A stretch of DNA of 42,052 nt. Source: a virus. A program made the translations under genes and the position numbers. The notes under the pieces were generated by a model. The model was given only the letters and a program-made list of their open reading frames with translations. It was not told the DNA's origin and did no database searches. Below, piece after piece: positions 1-21,570 of this stretch. The stretch covers positions 1 to 42,052 of the IMG/VR virus record IMGVR_UViG_3300036819_000345, one strand, 5' to 3'. Every line of letters starts with the position of its first letter. Positions within the stretch are counted from its first letter, which is position 1.

Positions 1-326
1 ATCGACCCGCACGTCCGTTGCGGCGGGAAGCTCTGGCAGCGCCGAAATGCCGGGGCAGTTATAGACCCGCACGTACGTTGCGGCGGGAAGCTCTGGCAGC
101 GCCGAAATGCCGGGGCAGTTATCGACCAGCACGTACGTTGCGGCGGGAAGCTCTGGCAGCGCCGAAATGCCGGGGCAGTTATAGACCAGCACGTACGTTG
201 CGGCGGGAAGCTCTGGCAGCGCCGAAATGCCGGGGCAGTTATCGACCCGCACGTCCGTTGCGGCGGGAAGCTCTGGCAGCGCCGAAATGCCGGGGCAGTT
301 ATAGACCCGCACGTCCGTTGCGGCGG
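1..326. repeat. 60-bp tandem repeat array, at least 5.4 copies
   Basis: Copies start at 1, 61, 121, 181, 241 and 301; the last stops after 26 bases. They are identical except at repeat positions 3, 8 and 15, each of which is A or C on the + strand. Position 3 alternates strictly C, A, C, A, C, A. The unit is exactly 20 codons of the leftward leucine-rich-repeat gene. The array reaches the window edge, so its full length is unknown; an assembly break inside the repeats is possible. Confidence 0.95.
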
Positions 327-399
327 ATGGGTTCTCGATTAGCTTTGCAAGAGTTGTTCGCTTGCCGTTGACTTCGATAGAAATCTGTTCAGGAGACAT
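1..399 (-). CDS. Leucine-rich-repeat protein of identical 20-residue units (partial)
   Basis: The leftward frame is open from an ATG at 399 to the left edge, so the C-terminus is missing. An AAGGATGG ribosome site lies just upstream of the start. After about 27 N-terminal residues (MSPEQISIEVNGK...), the protein becomes 20-residue units containing LPELP and a VxVxNCPGIS segment. This fits bacterial leucine-rich repeats: LPxLP as in the YopM/IpaH type, and LxLxxCxxIT as in cysteine-containing repeats. The units are identical except at three residues (D/Y, R/L, D/Y) that alternate with the core valines. It is the last visible gene of the leftward operon. Such proteins usually bind other proteins; the partner here is unknown. 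The repeat reading is fairly sure, the role is not. Confidence 0.75.
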   Translation of the reverse strand, partial: MSPEQISIEVNGKRTTLAKLIENPSAATDVRVYNCPGISALPELPAATDVRVDNCPGISALPELPAATYVLVYNCPGISALPELPAATYVLVDNCPGISALPELPAATYVRVYNCPGISALPELPAATDVRVD

Positions 400-1863: not shown

Positions 1864-2469
1864 TTAGCGTGGCTGAATGAATCCTACGGGCGCCGCCCAC
1901 TCGACGGGCTGGTTCTCGCGCGTCGGTTCGTTCCAACTGTCGAGGTTCCAAAGGTTTTTCTTGGCCCCGCGGCGCAGCGTTTTTAAGAGAGTTGGCCCAT
2001 TTTTTACCTGAACAACGCATAATTTTCCTACGCATCCTTCGGGAATTCCCTGATGCTCTTGTGCATAGAAAACGCGCCAGCCTGGCTGCAACGGATGTTG
2101 TGAGAAACCCTCGATTTCCGCGACGTTTGGGTACTTTTCCCAGACACCAATATCGACGCCTCCCAGTACCGTTCCGGTGTCGAACCGTACGATTTGCGCG
2201 CCTGCGCCAACTTTCCCGACAAGCAAGGGTTCAAATCGCTGCTCAATTTCACGCGAGCCTTTTCCGGTCGCGAGCCATTCGAGCCGAGCCCCTAGCGCAT
2301 CAGCGATGGCGGGCAAATGCTTACTGGTCGTGTTCCGTCCCGATAGCAGATGTTGAATTACTTGCTGCGAAACGCTGACACTCTTCGTGCTCGAAATCGA
2401 GGCTAACCCTTTTTGGGTAAAACCTTTTTCCTTCATTATCAGAGCTAGTCTGTGGCCGAGCGTGGTCAT
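1864..2469 (-). CDS. CI-like repressor: XRE HTH plus S24-like C-terminal domain
   Basis: The start is the ATG at 2469; the longer in-frame extension would run through the operators. Residues about 1-65 form an XRE-type helix-turn-helix (LGHRLALIMKEKGFTQKGLASIS...HLLSGRNTTSKHLPAIADALG). Residues about 85-200 resemble the peptidase S24/LexA fold, opening with VGKVGAGAQIVRFDTG. A serine lies in EGFSQHPLQPG and a lysine in VKNGPTLLKTL at roughly the places of the catalytic pair, but the usual SM motif is altered. SOS-type self-cleavage is therefore uncertain. The gene faces away from the cro-like gene across three palindromic operators and probably regulates itself and both early promoters. Confidence 0.85.
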   Translation of the reverse strand: MTTLGHRLALIMKEKGFTQKGLASISSTKSVSVSQQVIQHLLSGRNTTSKHLPAIADALGARLEWLATGKGSREIEQRFEPLLVGKVGAGAQIVRFDTGTVLGGVDIGVWEKYPNVAEIEGFSQHPLQPGWRVFYAQEHQGIPEGCVGKLCVVQVKNGPTLLKTLRRGAKKNLWNLDSWNEPTRENQPVEWAAPVGFIQPR

Positions 2470-2481
2470 GCCCGTTAGGTT

Positions 2482-2543
2482 ACAACATATGTTGTTGGTC
2501 CTTCTGGACAAGAATTGTTGTTGACCGAAACAACAATCGTTGT
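2482..2543. promoter_or_regulatory. Right operator: three ACAAC-N4-GTTGT sites
   Basis: Sites lie at 2482-2495 (ACAAC-ATAT-GTTGT, perfect palindrome), 2508-2521 (ACAAG-AATT-GTTGT, one mismatch) and 2530-2543 (ACAAC-AATC-GTTGT). Centre spacings are 26 and 22 bp. They fill the whole interval between the divergent repressor and cro-like genes and overlap both promoters. Three sites here and two at the left promoter make a lambda-style layout. Confidence 0.75.
2484..2511 (-). promoter_or_regulatory. Repressor promoter (PRM-like)
   Basis: On the minus strand TTGTCC (2511-2506) and TATGTT (2489-2484) are 16 bases apart and lie upstream of the repressor ATG at 2469. The -10 lies within the first palindrome and the -35 touches the second, so the same operators could repress or activate it. 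The boxes match consensus only moderately. Confidence 0.5.
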
Positions 2544-2548
2544 ATTGT
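2521..2548 (+). promoter_or_regulatory. Rightward early promoter (PR-like), probably giving a leaderless mRNA
   Basis: TTGACC (2521-2526) and TATTGT (2543-2548) are separated by 16 bases and overlap the second and third palindromes. Initiation about seven bases after the -10 would fall at or next to the ATG at 2555. No ribosome site precedes that ATG. The promoter is nearly a copy of the one at 1346-1373. Confidence 0.6.
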
Positions 2549-2554
2549 CCGGCT

Positions 2555-2839
2555 ATGGAATCGGCCACAGCGACATCATTTGAGAGAGCGGTTGAGCATA
2601 TCGGCGGTCAAACAAAGACCGCCCGGATGTTGAGCGATGCGCTGGGAAAGACCATTTCCCAGCAGCGCATTTGGAACGTGATCCGCCGTGGTCAACAAGT
2701 GCCCGCCGAATGGTGTTGGCCAATAGAACTAGCCACGCAGGGCAAGTTTCCGAGAACACGACTGCGGCCAGACGTATGGCCCCGGCAGACCGGAAACCGG
2801 GGTCGCACTCCCGCCTTTGCAGTTGGGGGTGCACGGTGA
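2555..2839 (+). CDS. Cro-like regulator, YdaS family
   Basis: This 94-residue protein starts at ATG 2555. Residues about 8-55 form a helix-turn-helix (FERAVEHIGGQTKTARMLSDALG...ISQQRIWNVIRRG), followed by VPAEWCWPIELATQGK. That combination is typical of YdaS/Cro-like phage regulators, which bind operators early in infection and oppose the CI repressor. It is the first gene of the rightward operon and directly faces the repressor. The C-terminal 25 residues after RPDVWP are proline-, arginine- and glycine-rich and not part of the usual domain. Its stop overlaps the next start as GTGA. Confidence 0.85.
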   Translation: MESATATSFERAVEHIGGQTKTARMLSDALGKTISQQRIWNVIRRGQQVPAEWCWPIELATQGKFPRTRLRPDVWPRQTGNRGRTPAFAVGGAR

Positions 2840-4046: not shown

Positions 4047-4234
4047 CGCCCGTTAAGGTTACGCGCGAGCCCGTTCGCATCGAATTCTTCGGCGCCCACA
4101 ACGTGTTCTCGTTTCTCTGCGGTCTTGGACCGATCGGTCTCATCTTCGCTGGGCTTATCGCATTCATATTGTTCACCTGGGTTTTGGCATTCGTGCTGGA
4201 AGTCAGCGACGTGATCGTGGGGCTGTTCTCATGA
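4043..4234 (+). CDS. Small membrane protein, 63 aa
   Basis: The N-terminal 20 residues are polar (MTPVKVTREPVRIEFFGAHN). A long hydrophobic stretch (VFSFLCGLGPIGLIFAGLIAFILFTWVLAFVLEV) follows, forming one long or two short transmembrane helices. It overlaps both neighbours by ATGA. The function is unknown. It could be an inner-membrane early protein. Confidence 0.6.
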   Translation: MTPVKVTREPVRIEFFGAHNVFSFLCGLGPIGLIFAGLIAFILFTWVLAFVLEVSDVIVGLFS

Positions 4235-12640: not shown

Positions 12641-13665
12641 GCGGCAAGGTTATCGGCTGGGCGATGGAGCAGGCTACGGGTTCGCCGGTGACAAAGCTTG
12701 TTCTTCTGAAACTTGCCGACAATGCCAACGAGGAAGGCGTGTGCTGGCCGTCGATTGCGTTGATGGTCACACACACAGAACTGTCCAAACGGGCGGTGCG
12801 AGAACATCTGGAACGCCTGGAGGCGTTGGGGCTTGTGAGGATAGAGCGTCGCACCTCCTGCGGCGGCAAACTGCCCAATATCTATCATCTGTTGATCAAG
12901 CCGGCCGGCGCTGGGGTGGTGCAGGAGGTGCACCAGGGGGGTGGTGCAGGAGGTGCACCAGTAGTGCACGTGGCGCACGACCTAGTGCAGGAGGTGCACC
13001 GGGGTAGTGCAGGAGGTGCACTTCCATATAAGGAAGAACCTCCAAGTGAACCGTCAAAGAACCTCCAACACCGCGCGCAAGCGCGCGGGGGAGAGGCATC
13101 TGGCGATGATCGGTTCAAACCCATCTGGCAAACCTTCGAGCGCTGGCCAGGTTTCACACCGGGAATGTCCCACCGCGCGGCAGAGCAGGCTTGGAAGCGC
13201 CTTGCGGAAGCGCGCGACTACGTTGGCGACGCCGAACTTGTCGCCGCCGTGGGGGCTCACGGGCGTTGGCTGGCATCCGAAAACGACCGTCGCGCGAGAC
13301 TGCGCCCGCCGCAGCCAGCCCATCTCGTCATGCACCCAAGCCGCTGGTTGCGCGAACGATGTTTCGACGGATATTTGCGGCTTGCCGAAAAAGACGCTGC
13401 AGGCACAGACGCTCGCGCGCGCGGCGAGGCGGACGTTCGGGAATCGCTGGGCGAAGAGATATTCGCGCGCCTGACCAAGGCGGGGTTTCAGGCGCAGGCG
13501 CTGGCGCATTGGTTCCACGGCGCGCGGATCGAGGTTGGGCCGCCGGCGCGTGTGGTTGTCCCGAAGGACTTCACCCGCAACTGGATCGAAACCCAGTTCG
13601 CGGCCCAGCTACGCCGCGCGCTGGGCGATGACGTTCGTGTGGAAGTGGCGAGGGCCGCGGCATGA
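12637..13665 (+). CDS. Phage replication initiator: winged helix plus DnaA domain I-like C-terminus
   Basis: The protein has 342 residues. Residues about 15-90 form a helix-turn-helix of the phage O/Rep type (VTKLVLLKLADNANEEGVCWPSIALMV...SKRAVREHLERLEALGLV). Residues about 92-135 are a Gly/Val/His-rich linker (QEVHQGGGAGGAP and similar) encoded by DNA iterons. Residues 155-260 include a helical region. The last 75 residues (FARLTKAGFQAQALAHWF...VPKDFTRNWIETQFAAQLRRAL) resemble DnaA domain I, which contacts DnaB helicase. The protein would bind the iterons within its own gene, as lambda O does, and recruit host helicase. No separate helicase loader is seen. Confidence 0.8.
   Translation: MSGKVIGWAMEQATGSPVTKLVLLKLADNANEEGVCWPSIALMVTHTELSKRAVREHLERLEALGLVRIERRTSCGGKLPNIYHLLIKPAGAGVVQEVHQGGGAGGAPVVHVAHDLVQEVHRGSAGGALPYKEEPPSEPSKNLQHRAQARGGEASGDDRFKPIWQTFERWPGFTPGMSHRAAEQAWKRLAEARDYVGDAELVAAVGAHGRWLASENDRRARLRPPQPAHLVMHPSRWLRERCFDGYLRLAEKDAAGTDARARGEADVRESLGEEIFARLTKAGFQAQALAHWFHGARIEVGPPARVVVPKDFTRNWIETQFAAQLRRALGDDVRVEVARAAA
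12919..13021. other. Candidate replication origin: iterons in the initiator gene
   Basis: Four exact copies of GTGCAGGAGGTGCAC lie at 12919-12933, 12944-12958, 12985-12999 and 13007-13021. A degenerate copy GTGCACGTGGCGCAC lies at 12964-12978. Start-to-start spacings are 25, 20, 21 and 22 bases, about two helical turns. Each unit is itself an inverted repeat (GTGCA...TGCAC). An A-rich stretch follows (13022-13060) with GAACCTCCAA occurring twice. The position matches lambda ori inside gene O. Confidence 0.7.
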
Positions 13666-20958: not shown

Positions 20959-21570
20959 ATGAATATCCACACGCTCAAGTCGAGCGCGGCGGCGCCTTTC
21001 GCAGCCCTGTTCGGCATTTCTCTAAACGCCAAGAAATCGGAAGGCGACGACGACAAGAAAAAGGACGAGGACGGCGACGACAAGGGCGCCAAGAAGTCCA
21101 AGGCCGAAGACGGCGATGACGACAAGGACGAAGACAAAAACGCCAAGAAATCGGAAGGCGACGACGACAAGAAAAAGGACGAGGACGGCGACGACAAGGG
21201 CGCCAAGAAGTCCAAGGCCGAAGATGACGATGACGATGAAGAAATGAAAGGTGAAGCACGTGGCCGCAGCGCCGAGCGGGCGCGGTGGACATCGGTTCTT
21301 GCGCATGGCTCCGCTGTTGGCCGTGGCGAAAGCGCATGCACGTTACTCGCGACAACGAGTCTCTCGGCTGATCAGATTGTCGGCGTTCTGAACGGCTTGC
21401 CTGCAGCAGATCAAAAGGCGAGCCGTCGCTCGCTGGATGATCGCATGGCGGTCCAGCCTGCACGCAATCCAGGCAGCGGCGGCGCCGAGAAGCCCGCCGA
21501 TGGTCCTGCCGCCACGGCAGCGGCCATGACGGCCGTCTACGACCGGGCGATCGGTCGCACGCCGAAGTAA
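20959..21570 (+). CDS. Acidic repeat protein, scaffold-like
   Basis: After 24 N-terminal residues, two copies of a 29-residue Lys/Asp-rich unit (AKKSEGDDDKKKDEDGDDKG...) are joined by a similar linker, giving a strongly charged, probably disordered segment to about residue 95. A short helical domain (ARGRSAERARWTSVLAHGSAVGRGESACTLLATTSLSADQIVGVLNGLPA) follows, of a type often found at the C-terminus of phage scaffold or protease genes. The position between protease and decoration protein supports a scaffold or capsid-assembly role. No catalytic residues are visible. GAGGTG lies upstream of ATG 20959. Confidence 0.6.
   Translation: MNIHTLKSSAAAPFAALFGISLNAKKSEGDDDKKKDEDGDDKGAKKSKAEDGDDDKDEDKNAKKSEGDDDKKKDEDGDDKGAKKSKAEDDDDDEEMKGEARGRSAERARWTSVLAHGSAVGRGESACTLLATTSLSADQIVGVLNGLPAADQKASRRSLDDRMAVQPARNPGSGGAEKPADGPAATAAAMTAVYDRAIGRTPK
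21024..21224. repeat. 87-bp exact direct repeat inside the scaffold-like gene
   Basis: Bases 21024-21110 and 21138-21224 are identical, 114 bases apart start to start, with a related but different 27-base linker between. The repeat encodes 29 identical Lys/Asp-rich residues in frame. Exact identity at the third codon positions indicates a recent duplication or ongoing conversion. Confidence 0.95.

What the first reader, a model, noticed from the sequence alone, without database searches (positions are those of the whole stretch)
1..399. LRR repeat array whose copies differ only at exposed strand positions
The 60-bp copies are identical at 57 positions. The other three, always A or C on the + strand, change codons 16, 18 and 20 of the unit: D/Y, R/L and D/Y in TxVxVxNCP. 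In leucine-rich repeats of the LxLxxCxxIT type, residues flanking the core hydrophobic pair line the concave ligand-binding face. Complete silence elsewhere, including synonymous sites, with protein-changing variation only there, suggests recent array expansion plus selection or a recombination-based diversification mechanism. The D/Y position nearest the repeat boundary alternates strictly along the array. This could be a phage-encoded variable binding protein.
Basis: partly seen in the sequence, partly recalled or inferred. Interest (0 to 1): 0.82.

Follow-up and report, generated by a model that had tools for sequence, protein, structure and literature searches.

The report
Phage repeat protein with variable face
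A bacteriophage gene encodes a small leucine-rich-repeat protein whose repeats are identical in DNA except at the residues that point out from its binding face, and relatives in many other phages show the same pattern, which suggests that phages keep reshuffling a ready-made recognition surface by recombination and selection.

Summary
On the minus strand (1-399) a phage gene, cut by the contig end, has a 60-bp array. Five full copies are identical at 57 positions; the other three change codons 16, 18 and 20 (D/Y, R/L, D/Y). AlphaFold gives a confident LRR solenoid whose strands are exactly x-V-x-V-x, with the variable residues at the outward positions.

The pattern recurs. Six other arrays, one inside a 1-Mb bacterial contig, vary mainly at the same strand positions; over all seven there are 33 nonsynonymous changes at 49 such sites against 4 synonymous at 123. 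Eighteen period-57 arrays repeat it (0.59 against 0.14 per site).

Several complete relatives carry a C-terminal cap (AGCRxFSIxxARxHWG) that also follows pentapeptide and hexapeptide solenoids in other phages. In two sets of nearly identical phages (hexapeptide relatives) the array differs while the flanks hardly differ.

Best reading: an accessory intracellular phage binding protein, diversified by recombinational array turnover plus selection on its ligand face, as in PRDM9 zinc fingers or fungal HET WD repeats. No reverse transcriptase was found. The ligand is unknown; anti-defence is a guess. The window array is truncated, so its C-cap is inferred; no function was tested.

The parts
1..399 (-). 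LRR solenoid protein gene, 133 codons visible, 3' end cut off by the contig start
   Evidence: AlphaFold pLDDT 91.5
322..399 (-). N-terminal cap (MSPEQISIEVNGKRTTLAKLIENPSA), beta-beta-alpha, conserved in relatives
   Evidence: similar caps in L061, L063, L069, L073
1..321 (-).
301..315 (-). first variable strand (DVRVY, residues 29-33); the corresponding 15-bp stretch recurs every 60 bp down to 1-15
   Evidence: strands 29-33, 49-53, 69-73, 89-93, 109-113, 129-132
1864..2568 (-). phage repressor (HTH, CI-like) on the same strand, upstream of the LRR gene: context only, places the gene on the lysogeny side
   Evidence: PHROG phrog_4 E=1.9e-14; HTH_3

Best explanation
The gene encodes a small intracellular phage solenoid protein that binds a ligand with the face formed by its stacked beta-strands. 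The array of near-identical units expands, contracts and exchanges units by recombination (inferred: helped by phage single-strand-annealing recombinases encoded near several relatives). This keeps the scaffold, including silent sites, homogenised, while selection keeps units that differ at the three or four outward strand residues. The result is a surface that can be re-made quickly to follow a changing target. Shown: the variation pattern, its recurrence, the fold prediction, and array turnover faster than the flanks in hexapeptide relatives. Inferred: that the variable face binds something, that the target is a rapidly changing host (defence) or rival-phage protein, and that the window protein carries the family C-cap beyond the contig end.
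For: Window: 3 of 3 variable sites on strand codons. Seven arrays: 33 nonsynonymous changes at 49.3 strand-codon sites against 4 synonymous at 122.7, P=2e-14; without the window P=6e-13. Eighteen period-57 arrays, strand positions fixed by alignment to the window unit: 0.59 against 0.14 synonymous and 0.045 elsewhere, P=5e-14. Predicted strands are exactly the variable stretches. Four-gamete combinations among sites a few bases apart in the window, L002, L015 and L029 arrays point to exchange between units or recurrent change. Vibrio phages 1.139.A and 1.139.B: 4198 bp of flank identical, gene 603 against 804 nt. Streptococcus phages Sfi19 and CHPC919: 1 difference in 943 flank bases, 14 in the array, 13 of them nonsynonymous. 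The hexapeptide gene is held by 3 phages (5 records) of 172 matching records at that site, so accessory. Genes near relatives: RecT-like, exonuclease VIII, Gam, Sak4, Rad52, methyltransferases, not tail genes.
Against: No function, ligand or expression is known. Variant counts use distinct base states and not a tree, so changes within one array are not fully independent. Turnover between near-identical genomes was seen in hexapeptide relatives, not in the LRR members themselves. The window's own C-cap is off the contig, and L006 and L008 lack it. The 1.139.B array contains in-frame stops, which may be an assembly error. Outward orientation was inferred from strand alternation, not computed.
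Confidence: 0.66

Rival explanations
1. Neutral array growth: the array is simply young, and strand positions vary because they are the only ones that tolerate change.
For: Arrays are young (near-zero silent divergence); outward residues tolerate change in many LRRs.
Against: Tolerance alone would give silent changes at least as often per site; they are about four times to twenty times rarer. The same positions vary in unrelated arrays.
Confidence: 0.1
2. A dedicated targeted mutator (diversity-generating retroelement or unknown enzyme) rewrites the strand codons.
For: Changes are confined to a few bases per unit while silent sites stay fixed; the same two-state choices recur.
Against: No reverse transcriptase (PF00078) in the window or in 11 related virus records, while the control genomes ring; changes are of all kinds (GT 9, AT 8, AG 7, CT 4, AC 3, CG 1), not adenine-specific. 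Records are fragments, so absence is not proof.
Confidence: 0.06
3. A structural, self-assembling or DNA-mimicking solenoid whose surface is tuned, without a specific varied ligand.
For: The C-cap is shared with pentapeptide and hexapeptide solenoids, and pentapeptide proteins can mimic DNA (own knowledge); alternating D/Y and K/E states could be contact patches between molecules.
Against: The window face mixes D, Y, R and L and is not mainly acidic; diversification is hard to explain for a fixed partner.
Confidence: 0.14
4. Assembly artefact: variants of a population folded into one contig.
For: The window array and several relatives sit at contig ends, where assemblers fail.
Against: Arrays lie inside contigs in L005, L006, L015 (1-Mb contig), L063 and L090 and show the same pattern. 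The unit order in the window could still be partly wrong.
Confidence: 0.04

Closest known systems
Podospora anserina HET-D/HET-E (NWD) WD-repeat proteins (PMC1805685, PMC2873952)
   Same: Near-identical repeats, concerted evolution, positive selection at four codons on the binding surface, arranged as pairs around a conserved residue
   Different: Fungal NACHT-WD allorecognition proteins with beta-propeller repeats; the phage proteins are small LRR or beta-solenoids, and the complete members read here have no NTPase
PRDM9 zinc-finger array (PMC3890296, abstract)
   Same: Coding minisatellite with positive selection at ligand-contacting residues and rapid turnover
   Different: Eukaryotic DNA-binding zinc fingers with a known DNA target
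TAL effector repeats (own knowledge)
   Same: Repeats identical except for residues that set specificity
   Different: Alpha-helical repeats reading DNA; no code or DNA binding shown here
Bacterial LPx leucine-rich repeats (YopM, IpaH, SspH LRR domains)
   Same: 20-residue LRR unit with LPxLP; weak sequence and fold matches
   Different: Those are secreted effectors; the complete relatives read here have no ubiquitin-ligase domain
Phage hexapeptide (YdcK-type, PF18836) and pentapeptide solenoid proteins, for example Streptococcus phage Sfi19 orf229
   Same: Related C-terminal cap, near-identical repeats, non-structural gene region
   Different: Different solenoid fold; function also unknown

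Membership tests
Leucine-rich repeat proteins | Tandem 20-30 residue units stacking short parallel beta-strands in a solenoid | tested here: met
   AlphaFold pLDDT 91.5, a strand every 20 residues; PDB matches are LRR proteins, best E 0.02. No Pfam LRR model reached its cut-off
Phage solenoid + AGCR-cap family (defined here) | N-cap of type IxIxVNxxRxSLAxL | tested here: met
   Alignments with L005, L009, L015
Phage solenoid + AGCR-cap family (defined here) | C-cap RGYxF...AGCRxFSIxxARxHWG | not testable with these tools
   Window gene is cut by the contig end; cap present in L005, L015, L063, L029, L081; L006 and L008 lack it
Diversity-generating retroelement target | Linked reverse transcriptase and template repeat | tested here: not met
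   No PF00078 match in the window or 11 related records; records may be fragments; no template repeat was sought separately
Diversity-generating retroelement target | Adenine-specific substitutions | tested here: not met
   All substitution classes seen
Concerted evolution with positive selection (PRDM9/HET-like mode) | Excess nonsynonymous change confined to contact codons with homogenised silent sites | tested here: met
   (counts of states, not a tree-based test; contact inferred from the fold)
Concerted evolution with positive selection (PRDM9/HET-like mode) | Array differs between near-identical genomes | tested here: inconclusive
   Shown for hexapeptide relatives, not for LRR members
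IpaH/SspH effector family | C-terminal E3 ligase (NEL) domain | tested here: not met
   No such domain in the complete relatives P0002, P0003, P0007; the window's own C-terminus is not visible
STAND/NLR proteins with high-identity repeats | NTPase domain | tested here: not met
   Complete relatives are 152-211 aa with no NTPase; the window's own C-terminus is not visible

The most novel reading that the evidence does not exclude
A phage-borne modular recognition code: each repeat reads one element of a ligand through two-state residues (D/Y at one strand position in 13 of 22 period-57 arrays, T/Y at another in 10), so that adding or swapping units re-targets the protein, like TAL effectors but on a beta-solenoid, and with one cap shared between LRR, pentapeptide and hexapeptide scaffolds.
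Probability: 0.12. Interest if true: 0.93.

Novelty: new variant of a known kind. Interest (0 to 1): 0.72.

Why it matters
The evolutionary mode (homogenised repeats with selection on contact residues) is described for fungal self-recognition and for PRDM9. Finding it in many phages, on at least two LRR unit types and with a C-cap shared with other solenoids, would mean that phages carry a cheap, rewritable binding surface. That would make two questions testable: what phages need to recognise that changes so fast (host defence proteins or rival phages), and whether these repeats follow a readable code. It also warns that such arrays break assemblies (several contigs begin and end in one) and get mislabelled as CRISPR spacers.

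Tried and rejected
Retroelement mechanism: no RT and no adenine bias. Direct relatives among annotated phages by sequence: none; reached only through the C-cap and hexapeptide repeats. Genome collection by single protein: none; by alignment: one Ferrovibrio MAG. Wider genome samples with the C-cap profile gave few hits. Weak library hits (HopW1, DUF4187, HAT1_C, LiaG, AIDA-I and the like) look like repeat or low-complexity matches. PADLOC: none. The exact window unit in other IMG/VR contigs: none. A linked code between strand positions 13 and 14 (basic with non-Y) is significant by unit but not by array, so not claimed. L007 (by eye) and L004 were set aside as not of the family. Literature searches found no description of these phage proteins, within open-access papers only.

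Full report
Observation. The window is a 42,052-bp IMG/VR virus record classed as linear. Its first 399 bases, read on the minus strand, are an open frame of 133 codons that runs off the contig. Five full 60-bp units are identical at 57 positions; the three others change codons 16, 18 and 20.

What surrounds it. On the same strand lies a repressor (1864-2568). To the right are a GapR-type DNA-binding gene, an AAA ATPase, a methyltransferase, a helicase, terminase, tail sheath and tape measure. So this is a contractile-tailed, probably temperate phage (inference), and the gene lies on the repressor side, away from tail genes.

Fold. With an alignment of six family members AlphaFold gives mean pLDDT 91.5; the strands are residues 29-33, 49-53, 69-73, 89-93, 109-113 and 129-132, that is, exactly x-V-x-V-x. 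With the valines in the core, the three variable residues should point the other way, to the ligand face of an LRR. I did not compute accessibility. PDB neighbours are LRR proteins (plant NLR, IpaH, SspH1), best E 0.02.

Relatives. Scans of IMG/VR found L002, L005, L006, L008 and L009, and one bacterial contig, L015, a Ferrovibrio MAG. L005 and L015 are complete and end in a cap RGYxF...AGCRxFSIxxARxHWG; L006 is complete without it. The same cap follows pentapeptide repeats (L031-L034), hexapeptide YdcK-type repeats (L021) and a 19-residue LRR (L029, L030). A structure search with P0007 returned pentapeptide phage proteins over their full length, though with poor superposition. Gram-positive phage hexapeptide proteins have a similar cap (hhalign probability 92%).

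Variation. In seven arrays, changes at the three strand codons are 33 nonsynonymous and 1 synonymous, against 6 and 3 elsewhere, with 49 nonsynonymous strand-codon sites and 123 synonymous sites available. Leaving out the window, which set the hypothesis, gives P=6e-13. A further pattern search found period-57 arrays in 25 contigs. Alignment on V...C maps their strand positions 14, 16 and 18 to the window's codons 16, 18 and 20; in 18 arrays, one per contig, the rates are 0.59 there, 0.14 for silent sites and 0.045 for other nonsynonymous sites (P=5e-14). The neighbouring position 13 varies too (0.58). Seven arrays have no other change at all. Counts are of distinct states, not events, and a few contigs may be related.

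Turnover. Several phage contigs begin and end inside one array (L069/L081, L073/L065, L075/L060, L061/L076), so the array is where assembly fails. In hexapeptide relatives, two Vibrio phage records with the same host-strain label share 4198 identical flank bases but differ by 201 bp in the array; the longer one has in-frame stops and may be misassembled. Sfi19 and CHPC919 differ once in 943 flank bases and 14 times in an array of equal length. In S. thermophilus phages the gene is an accessory: 5 records (3 phages) of 172 hold most of the query, and most of the others listed match only the flanks.

Mechanism. No RT and no adenine bias argue against a retroelement. Single-strand annealing or related recombination genes stand near several relatives (RecT-like in L015, Gam and Sak4 in Sfi19, Gam and Rad52 in phiRM10, exonuclease VIII in L005), a plausible but untested source of unit exchange. 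Selection on the strand face fits a binding protein with a changing partner. An intracellular anti-defence or anti-rival role is my preferred guess from the accessory, non-structural location; nothing tests it.

Comparison. The same evolutionary mode is documented for Podospora WD repeats (PMC1805685: four codons under positive selection on the interaction surface, concerted evolution) and for PRDM9 (PMC3890296). I found no description of it in phage LRR proteins, in an open-access library only. I rate it a new variant of a known kind.

Noticed in passing
L090:6164-7324 (+), also L082, L079, L089, L077: The same LRR arrays follow a second N-terminal module (MCKFASFVITKDREFWS... or its DQDxLPEW part), with 14 units in L090; no C-cap of the AGCR type was seen there.
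   Followed up: partly
L046-L049 (Vibrio phages 1.139.A, 1.139.B, 1.209.O, 1.034.O): Hexapeptide arrays are annotated as CRISPR spacers in the public records; the arrays differ strongly between nearly identical phages.
   Followed up: partly
L008:1743-1919 (+): Single-unit member of the family (58 aa), with a leader of about 50 bp repeated at its own start and at the start of the next gene, as if the array had collapsed.
   Followed up: no
L067, around the array at 4126 (-): Two LRR genes of this type appear in tandem, the second beginning just after the first stop.
   Followed up: no
L004:3200-4400 (-): A different, fibre-like protein with 60-bp LRR-like units near its end, with more divergent copies.
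   Followed up: no
window 21024-21236: A 114-bp tandem repeat of about two copies, 97% matches, lysine- and aspartate-rich if read in the + frame (TRF).
   Followed up: no
L002:1638-1667 and 1787-1836: Short perfect tandem repeats (9 bp and 18 bp) inside what reads as a methyltransferase gene near the LRR array.
   Followed up: no
window 12913-12961: A perfect two-copy 25-bp repeat (TRF).
   Followed up: no
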